Position numbers and translations under genes: made by a program
Shown here: piece by piece, positions 22,465 through 54,244 of the stretch
How positions within the stretch are numbered: position 1 is the stretch's first letter
How the letters are laid out: the number at the start of each line of letters is the position of its first letter
Assembly (NCBI RefSeq): GCF_000787575.1
Contig: NW_012236527.1
Coordinates: 1 to 64,000, forward strand
Length of the DNA: 64,000 nt
Source of the DNA: Acytostelium subglobosum LB1
Lineage: Eukaryota; Evosea; Eumycetozoa; Acytosteliales; Acytosteliaceae
Reading direction: 5' to 3'
The notes under the pieces: model-generated
The model's database searches: none
What the model was told of the DNA's origin: nothing
What the model saw: the letters and a program-made list of their open reading frames with translations, nothing else

Positions 22465-25400
22465 ATGGCCAACTACTACCACCAACACAATAATGGTTGG
22501 CACTTGCTATCGGGTGGTGGAACAACAACAACATCAACATCAACATCTAAATCACTCCTACTACTGGTGATATTGTTATTGAGCTGTTGTGCTCTAACCA
22601 CCCATGCCCAGGTGATCAACAGCATGTCTCCTAGATTCTCATATGTAGGAGGAGGAACTACATTTCTCATTGACGGCACAGGATTTTTATCTGCACCAAT
22701 AGTTCAAGTTACCTCACCTTCTGGCACTGTGGCAGTATTTGCTTTGACCCTCCACTTTGGTGACCTCTACTCGTATACTGTACCTCCTGAACCATCCAAC
22801 GCCAGCAAGAAGAGACCATTGAATAATGATATTCAATTCGATGTTATCTACAATGGTGGTGCAATATTCACCAATACCTTTGAGTATCTAAGTATGTTGA
22901 AATAACTACATCAAGAACAATCTACTTTTATTATTCTAACCAAAAACATCGACACATTATACACAACAGCACCCAAGATCAAAGATATATTGCCAATGGA
23001 TTATTACCCAATCACCAACAATAAGCCTCTAATCATTAATGGTGACCACTTAAGACTGTCGGATTCGGATGTTACACCAGTAGTCTCAGTTGGAGGTGTA
23101 AATTGTCATGTGATTGACTTTAAACCAAATGAAATCAAATGTACACTTGGAAATGCACCTGGTGCAGGAGCCGCCCAAGTTCAAGTTACCTTATACAGTG
23201 GACTTACTATAACCTCACCTGATCAATTGACCTTTCACCGTGAGTAATCTCAAAAAACAACAAACATCTGATCATTCTGATCATTACTCACACAAATATA
23301 CGTACACATACAAACAACAGTGCCTGTGGTCAACAACATTGTGCCCAGTAGGATCACAGCAGGACGAACACAGATCATTACCCTAAATGGACTATATCTC
23401 TATGACGATAAGAGTAGACCTGCTTCAGTCATTACCTTTGGAGGTGAAGACTGTACCAACATTGTCATAGTCAGTGACACACAGATCACGTGTGAGTCAC
23501 CACTTGTTGACGTGGCCGCAGGCAACTTTGTCAATGAAGCACTGGCCATCTCTATCGGAGCTCAACCCGTACTGTCTGCCATCAACCTGGAGGTATATAG
23601 TAAGTAATCGATTACTTCTTTTTGTAATATTGTTGTTGTTGTTGTTGCATGTCACTTGTTACTAACATCGGCCTGCCTTCAATAGCCCCACAAATATTGA
23701 CGATCCTTCCACAGTCTGGTCTTGCAGCTGGTGGTACCACAGTCAGAGTGACTGGATTGTTCCTCAGGGAGGTCACCGCTGCTACGATTGGTGGATCAGC
23801 ATGTGTCATCGTTGTAGCCTCAATCGCTGACAACCAATTTGATTGTGTTACTTCGGCATACAATCTTGGAGGTGCCTCCGAGGCAACCTTTATCTTGGTG
23901 GCAACAATCGATGGACAAACATATGACTCACCAAATACCGAGCAATTCACCTACTTTGGTATGTATATCAAACCACTGATGACGATGATGCTGTACTCAA
24001 ACTAACAAACTTTTGATCTCTGTTGTTAGTTCCCGTTATCCAATCATTGGTGCCCGTCAACACTATCACCAAGGGTACCTTCCCACTTGAGATCAAGGGA
24101 AAGAACTTCTTTGGTGTAACTGCTATTCAGGTCGGAACTCAAACCATCAATACGTTCAAGATCACAAGTGATGAGAACGCACAGTTTATCGACATTGATG
24201 CTTCTTTGCTTGCCGTAGGAGACAACAATGTCATCGTTCAGATTGGCACCACTTCATCCAACACTGCCACCTTTGTCATTGTTTCACCATCCCTACAGGC
24301 ACCTACCCCTGCAGATGGCTTCATGCACGTCGTCACACCAATCTCCATTCCATTCACCAACTTCCCAACACCACCCACCGTCAACCCTCTGACCGACTAC
24401 ACCAAGATCTTCATCAACGGACTAGAGTGTACAGGCTTGGCAATGCCAGATGCCTCTCACTTTTCTTGCAATGCACCCGTTTCCGCAGCGGCTGGTGCAT
24501 TCCCAATCACGTTCAAGATCTATGAGCAGGATTACGATCCAGCAATCACCTTCACCTACTATGATCTGACAATCACTGGTCAAGGACAAACAACTAACAT
24601 TCCAGCTGGAGGTGGTGTGCTCACCATTGATGGAACACATCTTGACGTCGTAAACATTGTGAACATCAACAACGTTCTCGTAGTTGGTTGCACATTGACT
24701 GCAGCACAGATCAGCTGTCCAATCCCACCCAATGTACCAGGAAACTACCCAGTCACAGTGATTGCAGCCGGTGTCACCTACCCCACCACTGGAACCATCA
24801 GCTATGTTGGACCAAATCTCGACCTTGTCACACCAAGACAGGGTAATGCCAGGCGAACCGTAGCCATCACATGTGTGGGTAATAGCTTTGGTGCCGTAGC
24901 AGCAAGTATTACTATCACTGTTGGAGGTGTCAATTGTCCAGGCGTTGCTGTCCTTCCACAAGTAGCAGGCAAGGACCGTGCCAGTTGTAACCTAGCCCCA
25001 GTTGCTAACGGTGCATATCCTGTTGTTATAAGTGTCGTTCCTGGTGGAGGTGGCCCTCCAGTGTCATCTATTAACGTAGTGCAATACACTGGCAATGGAC
25101 TCTCTTGTATGGGACCACCACTTCCCGACCAATCCAACAGTCCCGTCAATTGGTGGTTCACCTACAAGATCCGTCAGACCGATAACTACCTTTACCTCGA
25201 CGACACCCGTGATCAATTGGTCAGATTGGATCGTCTCTCTGATGTCAACCAAGCACCATACAGTGCCTTGGCCGCAACATTTGATCAATACCGAGATTAC
25301 TTCTACATGTTCTTCAACGATCAGATTGGATCACGTGACAACGCTGGTAAGAGATGTAATATGGTGAACCCTACACACGGACATGGTCATCTCAAAGGAT

Positions 25401-28400
25401 TCTTAATCTTTGAACAGGACCCAGTCACTCTACTCTACTCTGGTATCCACGTGATGCACTCCAATCCAGTGTTCCCAGCGATCAGTGGTGGAGGCTACTA
25501 CAACATCAATCAAGGCATCAGATGGTTGGGTGCAGCCGACTACAATCAACACTTCTTCTGTTACCAATGGAATGGACTTGAACAACCATTCAACTATCTG
25601 ATCCATAATGACGCTGTGTTGATAGATCATGCCTACAACATTCCCAACCTCTTGTTATGGAACCAGGTCATGCAGAACACCTATCCATTCTTCTACGACT
25701 ACATGACACTCTGGGAGCGACTTCCAGCTCGTGTTCCAAATGGTGGTGCACCAGCTCAGTGCACCCAGGCATGTTTCTCAGCGGCCTGCCTGGCGGCGAT
25801 TGCAGTCAACCCCAATGTCCAAAACATCTGTTACTGGCAATCTGGTGCATTCAATGTTGGTGCAATGACAGCCAACTACTTTATGAAGACCACAATTGAT
25901 CCAGACAATGCAGGTTTCCCAGCAGTGGCGGCCATCCATCCACCCGCACTCAGTCGCTTCATTGTGGTGAACGATCGTCGTAATACCTATGACGGTATTG
26001 ACATTTGGACAGTGATTGCCAACACCTACCAGAGAATGATGTTCATTGAGATGTTCTATGCTATTGGTGCAACTCAAACAAAACCAAACAGTGCTGTCAT
26101 CAACGTTGGTTATCTTCGTATGTACACCATTCCATCTGGAGTATAGAAAATCAACTTATTAACAACTCGTTCGACTTTCTCTAGACTTCCCTCCAAACCT
26201 CAACGTCCGTGTATTCGATATACCTACGGGCACATGGATATACTCTCATTATGAGTACACTGGCAAGAAGAATGAGCACGCCAAGATGGGTATCCCAATG
26301 TACCCTGTAGTTGGTGCCAATGCTTTGAATGCCAATGAGAACATGTTCTGTGTCGGTGACTCTAACAGACACAATGGTCAAGTATGTTGTTTGAAACATT
26401 ATTATACTTGTTGGAGGATAACAACTATTAACACAATCAATCTCACATCCATGAATTATTATTAGGGTGCCAGAGGAGGTGGAGCACTATGCTTCCAAAG
26501 CCCATTGCTATCATATCAATTCAATCGCATGGTTAGATCATATAACTCAATTGTAAGTTGTTATTATTTTCTCTATTGAATCATACACTTACATTTAATC
26601 TTATTTCACAACAATAGGAAGTTGGAACACTGACAGTCCAAAAACCAGCTATCAATTCGATGTACTTCTATGAGTCTATCATCCAGCCTCTAAAGATTGC
26701 AAGGGGTGCATGGGCCAATGATATCAACTTTGAGATCATGGATGCCATGAATGGTGTCGTCACCTCCAAGAATCCCAAGATGTTTGGTGTCGTAACAGCA
26801 GCCACACTTCCCAATGCTCAGGATATCAACCCAGAGTTTCCTTCACTCAGGACATCAATGGCCAACGCAGACAGTGGTACTGGAGCAATCAACCTTGGTA
26901 ACATTGGAGCAGATCCAAGTATCAGTGCCTATGTCTCTGATGACACGTTTGCCCTGGAGTACATTGCAGTCGATGTCACCATTGCCTCCATTTGTGACTT
27001 TGTTGTTGGAATGTTCCCTGCCAATCCATGCAACGACCAGAATGCCCGTAGAACTCGAATGACAGAGGCCTTGCCATTGCCTCCACCCGTTGTCTTCCCC
27101 AATGCCTACAACCAAGCATACCTTGCGACAATGGCTTTGAGAACCTTTGACGTGTTGGCCATCAATGACTTCCTGGTGATTGCCTACACACAAGAAATGA
27201 GGGGTCGCCTCCATATGAACCCAGCCACCCTGCCACCAGTCCAATACATCATTGAGCCAGCGCTCCAGGTACCATCAGTTGAAGGTCGCTTCACCCTCCG
27301 AAAGCTTGCCCCAATCTGTGAAGAAGAGCTATCCTACGACGTTGTGTTGGGCTTTGCACTCCAACAATCCAACTATGCTCCACAGGCCCAACTGATCTAC
27401 AACATTGACAACAATCTTCCAAACTGGGCCAATGGTGTTTTATATGCCATTGCCAAGTATATCTACAATGTAAGTAATCGAACGAGACAAACTATCCATT
27501 ATCCATCTTGTACATTCTGAACTAACACCCATATCTTATTCATTCTAGCAAATACCGCCAATAGCTACCAAGGATGGATCCTTGAATGCCTGCGTGCAAC
27601 AATACTTCCCTGCAATGAACAACATTGGCACGTACACAGAGGCTAAGCCAGTTGACGTCAAGACACCCACCCAGTGGCAACTGTTCTACAGAACTGCCGC
27701 TGCCACTTGGGACATGATGAATCCTTCTATTGCCAATGGAAATGGAGGCAGGACAAACAGACTCAACAATGCTGACATTATCACCTGGCAACAACTTCTT
27801 AACAAGGTGATCACACTTCGTCAGGCAGATGGAGTGACATCATTGGAGCAGCTCATTATTTCGTTGAACAATCCAGCCTTCTTGACCCCAACCAACAAGG
27901 AGTCACTCGAGAACAACTACCTGATCGAGAAGCCAGTAGTGGTAGTTGTCAAGTCCCTCGTGCATACTCTGTTCAAGTCGGCCAACTCTCTTAAGCATCA
28001 GAGCATTCCAAAGTTTAAGCTGTCGGCCAGCATGGCAATTGAGGATCAACAACAGCAATTGGTCAACAACTCAATCCTGTTGGATGAGTTTTACAATGGA
28101 TTGACGCCACTGGACATTGACTCAATGTACCTTGAGTCACCGATCCAACAGCTCTTGGCAACCACCTCAAAGGCATTCAACAACACTCAAGTGACCATGC
28201 TTAGCAATGCTAATCTTCACTCATTGGCACTAGCAATGAGCAAGTGGACCACCATCACTGGAGTCAATCAGGCAATCCAAGTGCTGTTGACCAATACTTT
28301 GTCAGAGACTCAGAGTCAGCCCATCGAATTCATTTCAGAACTCAACCGTGACCAAGTTGGAGGTCTCATCGAACTGTGCTACCAGTACATCGATGTGGAG

Positions 28401-31400
28401 AACTCATTGATCGCCATTTGCACTCCAATGTCAATGGTCTCTATGACATTCTTTATTGAGAGTGCAATTGTATCAGAGGTAACCTCACAGGTTCAGTTTG
28501 GTGACTTCAATGCCTACTTCCTACCCAAGCCACCCAACTACAATGGTTCAATCTCCAGTGAATATGATGGCATGGCCATTGCCACGATCAACTCCAAGAT
28601 CTGTGACATCCAAATGATGAGCACCAGTGACTTCCAAGCTCATAATTTCGATGGTCTGTGCACTGGCATTGGCCCTGTCGTGGTCAATATCACCAACATG
28701 GCCGGACCCACCGAGAGTGGATCCACATCAACAATCAACGGATTCAGATTCAACTCCTCAATTGACATCCAAATTGGAAACTATCCAATTGTCAATCCTC
28801 AGTACATCTCATCAACCCAGATCGTCTTCAACACACCTGCCGGAGTTGGAACCAACCTTGACTTTTATTTCCTCAGCTCAACAACATTGTTTAATCTCCA
28901 GAGAACCAAGTTCTACTTCTCCTTTGATGCACCAACCGTCACTGGCGTCTCACCCAGTACCCTTGACAGTCAAGGCAGTACAGTACTCACCTTGACTGGA
29001 ACCAACTTTGGTACCGATCCCTACTCTGCCAAGGTCACGGTCGACGAGTCTACACCTTGCTACCCAATCCTCGGCATCACATCCACAATGTTGGCCTGTT
29101 TCTCTCCATCTGGAATTGGTCAAGACAAGACAGTGCAGGTTGAAGTGGGAGGACAGACATCGACATTCACACTGGAAACAATCCCACAAGTATCATTCGA
29201 CTATGAAGCGCCCCAACTATCCGACTTCATTCCCCCAGCTGGTGATCCAGGTGATATCATTGTAATTCACGGAGATGGCTTTGGCACAATGGGCGATGGA
29301 AACGCTCCACCCATGGTGTTCCTAGGAGACGAATTGCTACAAGTGGTAGAGTACAGCAACACCTATATCAAGGTACTATTGGATGAAGGTGTCGGCAGTA
29401 ACCAGAGCATCACGATTCAAGCCGGAGACCAAACATCGCCATTCTACACCGAGTTTGGTTATCTGCCACCGGTGATCTCATCTGTGATCCAATCCAATCC
29501 TCTGTCCACATCAGGAGGATCACTTCAAATCAATGGTGAAGGATGGGGACTGTCACCAACAGAGATCGACTATGTCTATGCTGGACCCAATCAACTCTAC
29601 TATTGTAGTCCATTTGAAACATTCATCGAGTGTTTTGTTCCACCAGGAATTGGTGCACATCTAGTGATCAATGCCTCAGTGGGCGGCCAAGCAGCAATTG
29701 ATCAAGCGCCAATCAACTACATATCCTACACACCTCCATCGATCTCTTCATACAAATTGGTCACTGTAGGTGGTACCAACGTTATCCAGATCAGTGGTAC
29801 CAACTTTGTGCCTGTCGGTGTCAACTGGACCCCTGATACATCGTACATAAGCATCAACTATGTTGACAATAGCAACGTTCAGTGTCTTGGATTCATCAAT
29901 CATACATTTGCCCAATGTAATGTCACCAACAATATTGCATGGATGGTAATGTCTGTTGGTGGTCAGCTATCGCAAGAGATCTACATCACACCCAACCAGG
30001 TCAATCTCCAACTCTTTGTATTCAATGACACTAGCAACAATGGACTATACACACCAGGCAGTGAGAACCCCATCAGCGGTGTGTCGATCAATCTCACCGA
30101 CTCGACTGGTCATGTCACGACCTACACCACTGACACCACTGGTTACATCAACATCATGATCAATCAGAATGAGTACACCATTGTTGTTGTTGGAGGCCTC
30201 AACCAAAGTATGAACTTTGCCTCAATCAACAACATCGTCGTTGATCTCACCCAATCAAAGAACATCAGCATCCCTGTTGGAAGCACTTCCATCTATGGCT
30301 GTATAGGAACACTGACCGCAAGCAAGGCAACAATGACGGTGAGATGGGGAACTACACAAATCTCCAATTGGGGATTCTGTCAACCAAATAACCAAACTGC
30401 TTGTCAGTACATGGTTATAAGTGAAAGTGTAAGTTAACATTTAACTTGTATTGACTATGATAGTCGACTAACGCCATACACCTTTCAACCAATAGTTCCC
30501 ATTAGGATGTGTTCCATTGTTTGGACTCACAGAGGTTAATGTTAGATACAGTACAACATTGACACTCTATGCCTACATGGACAACAACGTCACAGGACAG
30601 TACACTGGCATTGCACCACCCCAAACAGACTACAACTTTATGTACACTTTCTACTTTAATGGCCGTGGCTGGTCTATGAGCAACACACCCTACCCCAATG
30701 GAATCTACTCGGCCATCAATGTTCCACCAGGTGATGTGACGGTTACGTTCTGGTCTCAAAGCGCATCACTCATACCAATTATGAATAGGGCTACATTCAA
30801 CCTGCCAGCCAGCAAGGAGACCACCATCCACAATGTCTACTATGGATTCTACAATGCCACTTCACCATACAATGGAAACCTCTACCCAGCATCTACGTTC
30901 TCCAATCAGGACTATTCAAATGGTGCCCAAATGAGCTTGCCACTGGGCAAGTACGACACATCGTTCCTGTCCACCTACAACTTTGTCAACAGTACCAGGT
31001 CGTACTGGGCTAGCAGCGCCTACTACAATGTCTACCTTTATTCCAATTCAACCTACAGTGTGATCACTGGAATCCCAACCAATGGTGGATACAATCTGGT
31101 AAACAACAGTGATCCAGCTGTTGGTGCACAGTTTGAAATCTCCTCCTCCACATTGTTCAGCTTCCTCAACTCCACTGGACCACTTTCTGCAAGTGGACAG
31201 AACGTCACCTTCCCAACGCCATACGTATATGAACAACCGGTCTACTCAATTGATGGTATGTAATTATCATGATGATACCATATTGCCAGACTAACTAACT
31301 AAACATCTTTTCTGCCCATCCAGTCTCTGGAGTGATACAGGTTATTCCATGTATCACTGGCTCAACACAATGGACGTCATGCCAGTTCCCTGCCAACAGT

Positions 31401-31481
31401 GCTGGTATCCACACCATCTATCTAACATGGAGAGGACAGAGTCTATACCAAACTTACAACGTTTGGTATGCCTCATCATGA
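22465..31481 (+). CDS. Giant secreted IPT/TIG-repeat protein with embedded DNase II domain
   Basis: Eleven exons (22465-22891, 22970-23239, 23321-23599, 23686-23958, 24030-26117, 26185-26381, 26466-26552, 26618-27469, 27549-30428, 30496-31255, 31324-31481) close in frame to about 2,756 residues. A signal peptide follows a 28-residue polar lead (LLLLVILLLSCCALTTHAQ). About eight IPT/TIG-like beta-sandwich repeats come first (for example INSMSPRFSYVGGGTTFLI, ILTILPQSGLAAGGTTVRV). Next is a full DNase II domain (about 25.14-26.54 kb) and roughly 600 residues I do not recognise. Four to five more TIG repeats follow (VTGVSPSTLDSQGSTVLTL), then a Cna-B/SdrD-like stalk domain (FNDTSNNGLYTPGSENPISG) and a Cys-containing beta-rich end. 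There is no C-terminal membrane anchor or evident GPI signal, so release to the vacuole lumen or medium is likely. TIG proteins in dictyostelids often serve in surface recognition; that role here is inference. Confidence 0.88.
25141..26540 (+). other. DNase II-like domain inside the TIG protein
   Basis: This sub-gene domain spans exons 5-7. It opens with VNWWFTYKIRQTDNYLYLDD (DNase II start), continues with DYFYMFFNDQIG, and then the first catalytic motif in GHGHLKGFLIFEQD (H-L-K). After NQHFFCYQWNG and DGIDIWTVIANTYQ comes the second motif in NEHAKMGIP (H-A-K), then MFCVGDSNRH and ARGGGALCFQSPLL. These correspond one by one to the human DNase II blocks around HTKG, TLLCVSF, DHSKW, CVGDMNR and RGGGTLC. 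Both HxK motifs needed for the PLD-like active site are intact, so phosphodiesterase activity is plausible at acidic pH. The spacing is longer than in the stand-alone enzyme, with an insertion of about 60-80 residues carrying Cys pairs (QCTQACFSAACL). Confidence 0.85.
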
Positions 31482-52749: not shown

Positions 52750-53323
52750 CGCTGTACTTTCCCTTTTGTGTTATCGCGATATTGTTAACTGTTGTTGATT
52801 GTTGTTTTGACTCTGTTGTATCTATCTCTATCAATGTAATTCTGTTGTTGCTCAATCTATGCTGTATCTGTTCATAAAGTGAAGTGAAGTCAACTCAAAG
52901 AAAAACAGCAAGTTTTGACTCAAACCACAATGGGTTGTTTGTGATCAAGAGTGAAGTCTGATGACATTGTAACTGATGACACAGTTCCTTTCTCTGTCGT
53001 TGTTGACTTGTAGTAATTAGACTCTGGATAACTATTAGTTTGGACCCTAAGACAATAATACTTATTACAATATTTTAGGGAATGATGATGCTTGACGAAA
53101 ATTGATAAAGGAAATCAGAACGATAGCTATTAAAGATTGATGACGATGATTGGATGTTCTCCAGTCACAGACAGTTGACATTCTATGGTCTTCCAACAAA
53201 TTCGATAGAACACAATCGAAAGTGATAATTAGTTGGACTCCAACTTCCAAGAATTGTGTCTTTGTGTTTGAGAGGTGTGATAAACAAACTGTTTTGTTTT
53301 CCACTGTCATCATTCCAACGACT
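52750..53323. promoter_or_regulatory. Divergent promoter region, NOT2 / Tag glycosylase
   Basis: 574 bases between divergent genes. A plus-strand frame is open from about 53150 into the glycosylase but lacks an ATG before 53324, so it is taken as 5' leader. No specific element was recognised. Confidence 0.45.
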
Positions 53324-54244
53324 ATGTTAACACAACTGTTTAGATCATTCCAAACAAGACTTATACCAAAGATCATCGCAATGGACTCAATATCATTCAC
53401 TTCAACTACATCAACCACAACAACAACAAATATCAAACCAAAACCAGAGATTGATAGTACGACTATAAACGTTGCTGATCGATGTCCTTGGCTTGGCAAA
53501 ACTCCAGATCCACTCTATCTTAAATACCACGACACGGAATGGGGATATCCAGAGAGAGACCCTATCAAATTGTTTGAGAAGATCTGTCTCGAGGGCCAAC
53601 AATGTGGATTGTCTTGGTTCACCATACTCAAGAAGCGAGAGGAATACAGACGCTCATTCCACAACTTTAACCCTGTGGTGCTTGCCAATTTCACCGAGTC
53701 TGATGTTGATCGTCTAATGAAGAATGAAGGCATCATCAGGAATCGAAGCAAGATCAACGCCATCATCAAGAATGCCAAGGCCTTCAATGTCATGCGGGAC
53801 AGTGGCGAGGACTTCTCAAAGTTCATATGGTCCTTTGTCAATGACAAACCAATAGACAGTCATCGCTCCGGTGCCAATGGATGCAGTGGATGGCCTACAC
53901 GCAGTGAACACTCTGATGCCATGGCAGTGTCACTCAAGAAGAAAGGATTCGTCTTTATCGGTACTACTACATGCTATGCATTCATGCAGTCAAATGGATT
54001 GATTAATGATCATGCTATTGAATGTCATCGTCATCCTTCCTACAAGATTGGTAACCGTTCATCGTTGAAGACGATCAAACAACCTGTTGATCAAGCTGAC
54101 CAAATCGATGTGTTGTCAAGTGATGACGATGAACAAGATGATATAGTTGTTGTTGTTGAGGATGTCAAGCCAAAGAGGAAGGTGCCAGTCAAGAAGGAGT
54201 CACCAAAGCAACAGACCAAGAAGAAGAGTAATAAGAAGAATTGA
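53324..54244 (+). CDS. DNA-3-methyladenine glycosylase I (Tag family)
   Basis: Intronless. From ATG 53324 there are 306 residues; a second in-frame ATG at 53381 would give 287. The segment between (MLTQLFRSFQTRLIPKIIA) is basic and amphipathic and could be a mitochondrial targeting sequence. The Tag domain follows: RCPWLGKTPDPLYLKYHDTE, EGQQCGLSWFTILKKREEYR, GTTTCYAFMQSNGLINDH and AIECHRHP, with the four Zn ligands (Cys, His, His, Cys) all present. The family, bacterial in origin, excises 3-methyladenine in base-excision repair. The tail is eukaryote-like: an acidic Val-rich segment (DDIVVVVEDV, SUMO-interacting-motif-like) and a Lys-rich end (KPKRKVPVKKESPK), likely nuclear targeting. Confidence 0.92.
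   Translation: MLTQLFRSFQTRLIPKIIAMDSISFTSTTSTTTTTNIKPKPEIDSTTINVADRCPWLGKTPDPLYLKYHDTEWGYPERDPIKLFEKICLEGQQCGLSWFTILKKREEYRRSFHNFNPVVLANFTESDVDRLMKNEGIIRNRSKINAIIKNAKAFNVMRDSGEDFSKFIWSFVNDKPIDSHRSGANGCSGWPTRSEHSDAMAVSLKKKGFVFIGTTTCYAFMQSNGLINDHAIECHRHPSYKIGNRSSLKTIKQPVDQADQIDVLSSDDDEQDDIVVVVEDVKPKRKVPVKKESPKQQTKKKSNKKN

What the first reader, a model, noticed from the sequence alone, without database searches (positions are those of the whole stretch)
22465..31481. Fusion of IPT/TIG repeats with a complete DNase II domain in one giant secreted protein
The splice-phase-consistent model joins a signal peptide, about eight TIG-like repeats, a DNase II domain with both HxK motifs (GHGHLKG and NEHAKMG), a 600-residue unrecognised region, four to five further TIG repeats and a Cna-B-like stalk. 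DNase II is known to me as a stand-alone lysosomal enzyme of about 350-400 residues. I know of no described TIG-DNase II fusion. A secreted, surface-recognising nuclease could act on extracellular or bacterial DNA (prey digestion, biofilm or DNA-trap breakdown). All exon phases close without a stop, so a mis-joined pair of genes is unlikely.
Basis: partly seen in the sequence, partly recalled or inferred. Interest (0 to 1): 0.92.

Follow-up and report, generated by a model that had tools for sequence, protein, structure and literature searches.

The report
Giant secreted TIG-repeat DNase II protein
A social-amoeba gene joins adhesion-type repeats to a DNA-cutting enzyme domain in one very large, probably secreted protein; it belongs to a family of such genes, some of which sit back to back with relatives whose cutting residues are gone.

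Summary
The gene at 22465-31481 (+) has 11 exons, 10 GT-AG introns and 2756 aa. Pfam finds TIG on both sides of DNase_II (1.5e-23). TIG and DNase_II share one uninterrupted frame, so the fusion needs no splice call. Both HxK motifs align with DNase II structure 5i3e.

It is one of 11 TIG-DNase II genes in this genome, beside two stand-alone DNase II genes and one fragment. Two paralogues share the whole layout at 57-61% identity. Seven of 11 keep both HxK motifs; 4 of 11 lost the histidine of both. The two sets separate in a tree. Three intact genes each lie head-to-head with a dead gene, 0.9-1.7 kb apart. Each of the 11 has a signal-like start, 3 of them not yet joined to my gene model.

Best reading: a secreted, probably active nuclease on an adhesive Ig-like scaffold; site and substrate are inferred. 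DNase II expansion in dictyostelids is in print as a GO term (PMC8535579 passages); my searches found no account of the fusion or the active/dead pairs.

The parts
22465..31481 (+). Whole TIG-DNase II gene, start codon to stop codon, 11 exons, 2756 aa
   Evidence: same protein from the gene finder; paralogues with the same layout
22465..22608 (+). Signal-peptide-like N-terminus (aa 1-48, hydrophobic core about aa 30-48)
   Evidence: Most hydrophobic 19-residue window of the protein, 2.18, starts at aa 30; cleavage site judged by eye
22609..25090 (+). N-terminal TIG array (aa 49-770), introns included; 7 Pfam TIG stretches
   Evidence: PF01833 2.4e-45; genome matches at 22972, 23323, 23688 and 24590
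24032..26116 (+). Uninterrupted coding frame of exon 5 that holds both TIG and the N-terminal half of DNase_II
   Evidence: PF01833 3.9e-15 and PF03265 1.3e-15 in one 695-aa frame
25091..26552 (+). DNase II domain (aa 771-1207, exons 5-7, introns included)
   Evidence: PF03265 1.5e-23; family profile hits DNase II structure 5i3e at 3.8e-24
25388..25396 (+). N-terminal HxK motif (H870-L-K872)
   Evidence: Invariant H100/K102 of alignment A2; aligned with GHTKG of 5i3e
25457..25459 (+). His893, taken as the counterpart of His132, the third essential histidine of porcine DNase II
   Evidence: Invariant H123 in A1 and A2; His132 named in a reference title of PMC11430429; the correspondence rests on the HSxPxFP motif and is inferred
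26277..26285 (+). C-terminal HxK motif (H1144-A-K1146)
   Evidence: Invariant H374/K376 of A2; aligned with DHAK of 5i3e
26618..28700 (+). Tail domain (aa 1208-1875, exon 8 and first part of exon 9), without a Pfam match or a credible PDB match
   Evidence: Found in the 7 intact paralogues only; a diverged form in the dead ones
28701..29990 (+). Second TIG array (aa 1876-2305), 3 Pfam TIG stretches
30015..30191 (+). Weak SdrD_B (Cna-B-like) match (aa 2314-2372)
   Evidence: PF17210 25 bits, below its cut-off of 29.7
30192..31481 (+). C-terminal region (end of exon 9, exons 10-11), unrecognised; aa 2306-2756 match C47 and C51b at 53% identity

Best explanation
This is a secreted giant nuclease. 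A signal sequence sends it into the secretory route. The two TIG arrays form an Ig-like, adhesive or spacer scaffold. The DNase II domain between them cuts nucleic acid by the DNase II mechanism, with the two HxK histidines. It most likely works outside the cell or in an acid food vacuole, on DNA of prey bacteria or biofilm, or on the DNA traps that dictyostelid sentinel cells release. Shown by sequence: the gene, the fusion, the motifs, the family, and constraint on the protein. Inferred: secretion, activity, the role of the TIG arrays, substrate and place.
For: The gene closes over 2756 aa and paralogues C47 and C51b match all five segments of it in order. TIG and DNase_II pass their Pfam cut-offs in one uninterrupted frame in 7 of 8 frames scanned, from 8 of the 11 genes. 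Both HxK motifs are invariant in the 5 giant and 1 stand-alone sequences of A2 and align with 5i3e. 7 of 7 genes of the intact group have both motifs in their DNA. Window v. C47 in the DNase domain: dN 0.24, dS 1.64, dN/dS about 0.15, with dS near saturation. A signal-like start was found for 11 of 11 genes. Two separate stand-alone DNase II genes exist that could serve the ordinary lysosomal role.
Against: No transcript, protein or activity data were available. DNase II of the known kind is an acid enzyme, which fits a lysosome better than open soil water. The C-terminal motif reads HAKM where canonical enzymes have HSKW. Both structure predictions failed (mean pLDDT 27.9 and 32.8), so the fold was not confirmed that way. 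Four of 11 relatives lost both HxK histidines, so the scaffold is kept without catalysis in part of the family. Sequons are scarce in the parts nearest the enzyme (1 in aa 1-770, 0 in the DNase domain, 22 in the rest), a weak point for a secreted glycoprotein.
Confidence: 0.6

Rival explanations
1. Two-part recognition system: intact and dead TIG-DNase II proteins are expressed together from head-to-head genes and bind each other, as the TIG proteins TgrB1 and TgrC1 do in D. discoideum. The DNase II fold then serves mainly as a binding or regulatory module.
For: 3 of 4 dead genes lie head-to-head with an intact gene, with 868, 971 and 1687 bp between start codons. Intact and dead sets are each one side of a 100/99 branch, so the pairing is older than the pair duplications or arose repeatedly. 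TIG domains of Tgr proteins mediate cell-cell binding (passages of PMC12324515).
Against: 4 of 7 intact genes, the window gene among them, and 1 of 4 dead genes (C45a) have no opposite-type PF03265 match near them in the 17 matches. The window protein has no hydrophobic C-terminus. Binding was not tested. The C45 pair has a 100-N assembly gap inside the intact gene. The head-to-head layout of tgrB1/tgrC1 is recalled; two searches gave no passage for it and the source paper is not held.
Confidence: 0.2
2. Phagosomal digestion: the protein goes to the food vacuole, where the TIG arrays hold bacteria or wall fragments and DNase II digests their DNA.
For: Signal-like start, a nuclease family with acid enzymes, a bacterivorous host (established knowledge of dictyostelids).
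Against: Two stand-alone DNase II genes are already present. Sorting signals were not tested.
Confidence: 0.17
3. Annotation artefact: two neighbouring genes joined by mistake.
For: No RNA evidence either way.
Against: TIG and DNase_II in one intron-free frame in 7 of 8 frames scanned; paralogues with the same layout and mostly the same intron sites.
Confidence: 0.02

Closest known systems
DNase II (PF03265; solved structures 5i3e and 5unb, by recall from Burkholderia)
   Same: Profile match, both HxK motifs, HSxPxFP histidine, GDxNR..Q..RGGG region
   Different: The stand-alone enzymes seen here are 360, about 416 and 381 aa; here the domain is about 437 aa, longer in its middle part, inside a 2756-aa protein
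Tgr (tiger) proteins of D. discoideum
   Same: Secretory-route proteins with extracellular TIG repeats; a head-to-head pair layout in part of this family, compared with tgrB1/tgrC1 by recall
   Different: Tgr proteins are transmembrane (PMC12324515 passages); the window protein has no hydrophobic C-terminus, and the passages read name no DNase II part
DNase II-like family of Trichinella spiralis
   Same: Large family with members whose active histidine is replaced; TsDNase II-7 is found in excretory-secretory products and has no DNase activity (PMC10249883 passages)
   Different: The passages read mention no TIG repeats; a worm family
Colossins / Cna-B proteins of dictyostelids
   Same: One weak SdrD_B match near the C-terminus
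   Different: Below the curated cut-off and a single copy; the core is TIG plus DNase II

Membership tests
DNase II (PF03265) | Curated profile score | tested here: met
   83.9 bits v. cut-off 23
DNase II (PF03265) | Two HxK catalytic motifs | tested here: met
   H870/K872 and H1144/K1146, aligned with 5i3e
DNase II (PF03265) | Third essential histidine (porcine His132) | tested here: met
   H893, invariant in A1 and A2; its equivalence to His132 is inferred from the motif, no porcine sequence was aligned
DNase II (PF03265) | DNase II fold | tested here: inconclusive
   Structure prediction of the exon 5 part failed, pLDDT 27.9
DNase II (PF03265) | Metal-independent acid nuclease activity | not testable with these tools
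   Needs protein
IPT/TIG domain proteins (PF01833) | Curated profile score | tested here: met
   152.9 and 93.3 bits v. cut-off 20.9
Tgr family | Transmembrane segment after the extracellular TIG domains | tested here: inconclusive
   By hydropathy alone: best window in the last 100 aa is 1.24; outside the signal region the best are 2.0 at aa 355, in the TIG array, and 1.77 at aa 1322, in the tail domain
Colossin / SdrD_B | SdrD_B domain above cut-off | tested here: not met
   25 bits v. 29.7

The most novel reading that the evidence does not exclude
An old two-gene unit: a divergently transcribed pair in which one giant TIG protein carries an active DNase II and the other a dead one. The pair acts outside the cell as an enzyme plus a dedicated dead partner that binds, targets or restrains it. 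The window gene descends from the active half, which later multiplied on its own.
Probability: 0.28. Interest if true: 0.82.

Novelty: new variant of a known kind. Interest (0 to 1): 0.64.

Why it matters
DNase II is known mainly as a small lysosomal enzyme. A family of giant, probably secreted versions on an Ig-like scaffold, with active and dead members partly in back-to-back pairs, would link nuclease biology to the adhesion and recognition proteins of social amoebae. It gives concrete genes with which to test how bacterivores handle prey DNA, biofilm or their own DNA traps, and enzyme/dead-enzyme pairs to study.

Tried and rejected
Mis-joined genes: rejected. A TIG-DNase II fusion borrowed from bacteria or viruses: one scan of genome contigs confirmed 1 of 66 candidate stretches, a stand-alone 381-aa DNase II of Puia dinghuensis; one scan of viral contigs confirmed 0 of 55. 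Both scans look for short degenerate patterns, so they are not exhaustive. Tail domain of known fold: the only PDB match up to E 1 was a ribosomal protein at 0.027, not credible; none in Pfam. Structure prediction: two jobs, both useless (pLDDT 27.9 with 2 rows, 32.8 with 1 row); no fold search was run on them. Joint duplication of the pairs as shown by the tree: intact and dead trees are compatible (C37 and C45b apart from C49 in both), but with three pairs and open forks this proves little. Tree caveats: C37_dead has a long branch, C37_dead and the bacterial row have odd composition, and the C36 fragment was left out. My first gene finder gave poor models and was replaced. Several paralogue models stay rough: C44 stops inside the tail domain, C47 skips its C-terminal HxK exon part, and the C37 models run on. 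One search was a submission in the wrong format.

Full report
What is there. The window is part of contig C51 of a 30.7-Mb genome in 56 contigs. The gene at 22465-31481 (+) reads through 11 exons to 2756 aa, with 10 GT-AG introns of 65-86 nt. A simple gene finder that I wrote returned the identical protein; its training set included this gene, so this is weak support. Better support comes from two paralogues, C47 (C47:82.6-91.4 kb, +) and C51b (C51:305.3-314.2 kb, -). All five segments of the window protein match both of them in order. Overall identity is 61% (1613 of 2646 aligned residues) and 57% (1522 of 2690). Of 7 introns in each model, 7 of 7 (C47) and 6 of 7 (C51b) start in the same aligned column and phase as a window intron; 3 of the 10 window introns have no counterpart. 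The paralogue models come from the same gene finder, and the C47 model takes a late acceptor after one shared donor.

Domains. Pfam gives TIG with 7 stretches in aa 1-1200 (2.4e-45), DNase_II in the same piece (1.5e-23, 83.9 bits, cut-off 23, 2 stretches), TIG with 3 stretches in aa 1201-2400 (9.5e-27) and one SdrD_B match under its cut-off (25 v. 29.7 bits); the last 356 aa have no match. In the frame 24032-26116, without any intron, TIG and DNase_II both pass. I scanned 8 uninterrupted frames, from 8 of the 11 genes (not C51b, C37-, C45b-): 7 of 8 hold both families over their cut-offs; the eighth (C37+) holds DNase_II over positions 1-324 of 326, its TIG matches lying in other frames. So the fusion does not rest on splice calls.

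Catalytic residues. In an alignment of 5 giant and 1 stand-alone sequence both HxK pairs are invariant. A profile from it finds the DNase II structure 5i3e at 3.8e-24 and lines up both motifs; the window domain alone finds 5i3e only at 0.0007. Window residues are H870/K872 and H1144/K1146. H893 is taken as the third essential histidine of the porcine enzyme by motif; the porcine histidines are named in a passage and a reference title of PMC11430429.

The family. PF03265 has 17 matches in the genome. Fourteen fall in 11 genes that also have TIG matches in the same frame or gene model (the TIG search scored 150 of 397 candidates). Two are stand-alone genes, C41 and C55, with HAKG/HSKG and HSKW. 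One, on C36, is a C-terminal match with no TIG match on that contig. For C37- and C45b- the link between DNase_II and TIG depends on my gene models and on the tail region that bridges them.

Intact and dead members. Seven of 11 have both HxK motifs: window, C51b, C47, C44, C49+, C45b+, C37+ (the C47 C-terminal motif was found by hand). Four of 11 lost the histidine of both: C49-, C45a, C37-, C45b-. Their N motifs read LGKG, ISKG, GPRG, AARG and their C motifs DRSR, DRSI, DQSH, DEAQ, in that order; C49- and C45a were placed by multiple alignment, the other two by pairwise alignment and eye. C6, W21, D77 and H123 remain in the two dead rows of A1. A tree of 14 DNase domains puts the 7 intact (100/99), the 4 dead (100/99) and 3 stand-alone sequences, one bacterial (98/96), each on one side of a branch. 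One branch is long (C37_dead) and two rows have odd composition; the C36 fragment was not included.

Head-to-head pairs. On C37, C45 and C49 an intact gene and a dead gene are divergently oriented with 971, 868 and 1687 bp between their signal-bearing start codons. The longest stop-free stretch between them is 90, 76 and 111 codons. The fetched C37 and C49 stretches hold no N; on C45 a 100-N gap (316157-316256) lies inside the intact gene, between its start and its DNase domain, so that pair rests on the assembly's join. The window gene has no such neighbour: the gene upstream, on the same strand, is a CRM1 exportin. C47, C51b, C44 and the dead C45a also have no second PF03265 match nearby.

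The 600-residue region. It is a conserved tail domain. A single-sequence search finds it in the 7 intact genes and nowhere else in the genome at E 0.001 (13 matches, all inside those genes). It does not match the 4 dead gene models by BLAST at 1e-4. Dead C45a does match the end of three intact tails weakly (E about 1e-4 to 4e-4), and the other three dead genes align with C45a or C49- there. No Pfam family, no credible PDB match.

Constraint and secretion. Nei-Gojobori dN/dS between window and C47 is about 0.15 in the DNase domain (dN 0.24, dS 1.64); dS is near saturation in most segments and could not be computed in one (tail, window v. C51b). For 11 of 11 genes there is a start codon followed by a strongly hydrophobic stretch, judged by hydropathy, not by a trained predictor; for C49-, C44 and C45b- this stretch is not joined to the gene model. 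In the window protein the signal region is the most hydrophobic (2.18); the next are 2.0 at aa 355, in the TIG array, and 1.77 at aa 1322; the last 100 aa reach 1.24. Sequons: 1 in the first TIG array, 0 in the DNase domain, 4, 6 and 12 in the three later parts.

Which organism. There are 35 Endotoxin_N matches, some being two parts of one gene. PMC4334915, Table 2 (section 7 read) gives 27 such genes in Acytostelium subglobosum and 4-6 in three other species, so an Acytostelium-like species is likely, not proven.

What is known. PMC8535579 (passages) lists deoxyribonuclease II activity among enriched GO terms of lineage-specific gene expansions shared among dictyostelid species; five were studied, A. 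subglobosum not among them. PMC4148230 (passages) puts DNase II of D. discoideum and D. fasciculatum in its tree. PMC4334915 reports an IPT/TIG family of 9, 43, 35 and 50 members in four species, and PMC4931340 counts 55-110 TIG proteins in three dictyostelids (passages). Trichinella has a large DNase II-like family; TsDNase II-7 is secreted and inactive (PMC10249883 passages). Searches listed no title or abstract start on a TIG-DNase II fusion (12 of 15 hits shown in 73, the others in full). The library lacks most subscription papers, and InterPro and the dictyostelid proteomes could not be searched, so an automatic annotation of this architecture may exist.

How it probably works. Secretion, then an Ig-like scaffold with a DNase II in its middle, cutting DNA through the two HxK histidines. 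Likely substrates are DNA of prey or biofilm, or the DNA traps that sentinel cells of D. discoideum release (PMC5758549 passages). This last step is inference. The pairs suggest that part of the family works as an active/dead duo.

Noticed in passing
own genome: C37:315525-316497, C45:314841-315710, C49:856046-857734: Three intergenic regions each separate a divergently oriented intact and dead TIG-DNase II gene; possible shared promoters.
   Followed up: partly
L025 (C44:771.5-776.2 kb, +): Paralogue C44 keeps both HxK motifs but its frame ends inside the tail domain, with no TIG match after it; a shortened or decaying gene.
   Followed up: partly
L027, C36:353446-353646 (-): A DNase_II C-terminal match (28.1 bits) with an H-E-K motif and no TIG match on that contig; perhaps a third, diverged stand-alone gene.
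   Followed up: no
own genome, 35 places: Endotoxin_N (PF03945) has 35 matches, in line with the expansion reported for Acytostelium subglobosum in PMC4334915.
   Followed up: partly
L021:197-2830 (C47:79197-81830, +): A gene-finder model with TIG-like sequence and a hydrophobic segment near its C-terminus lies just upstream of paralogue C47; judged by eye, no Pfam scan.
   Followed up: no
window 53150-54244 (+): Methyladenine glycosylase frame (PF03352, 1.9e-69); by recall mostly a bacterial family, so a possible old transfer.
   Followed up: no
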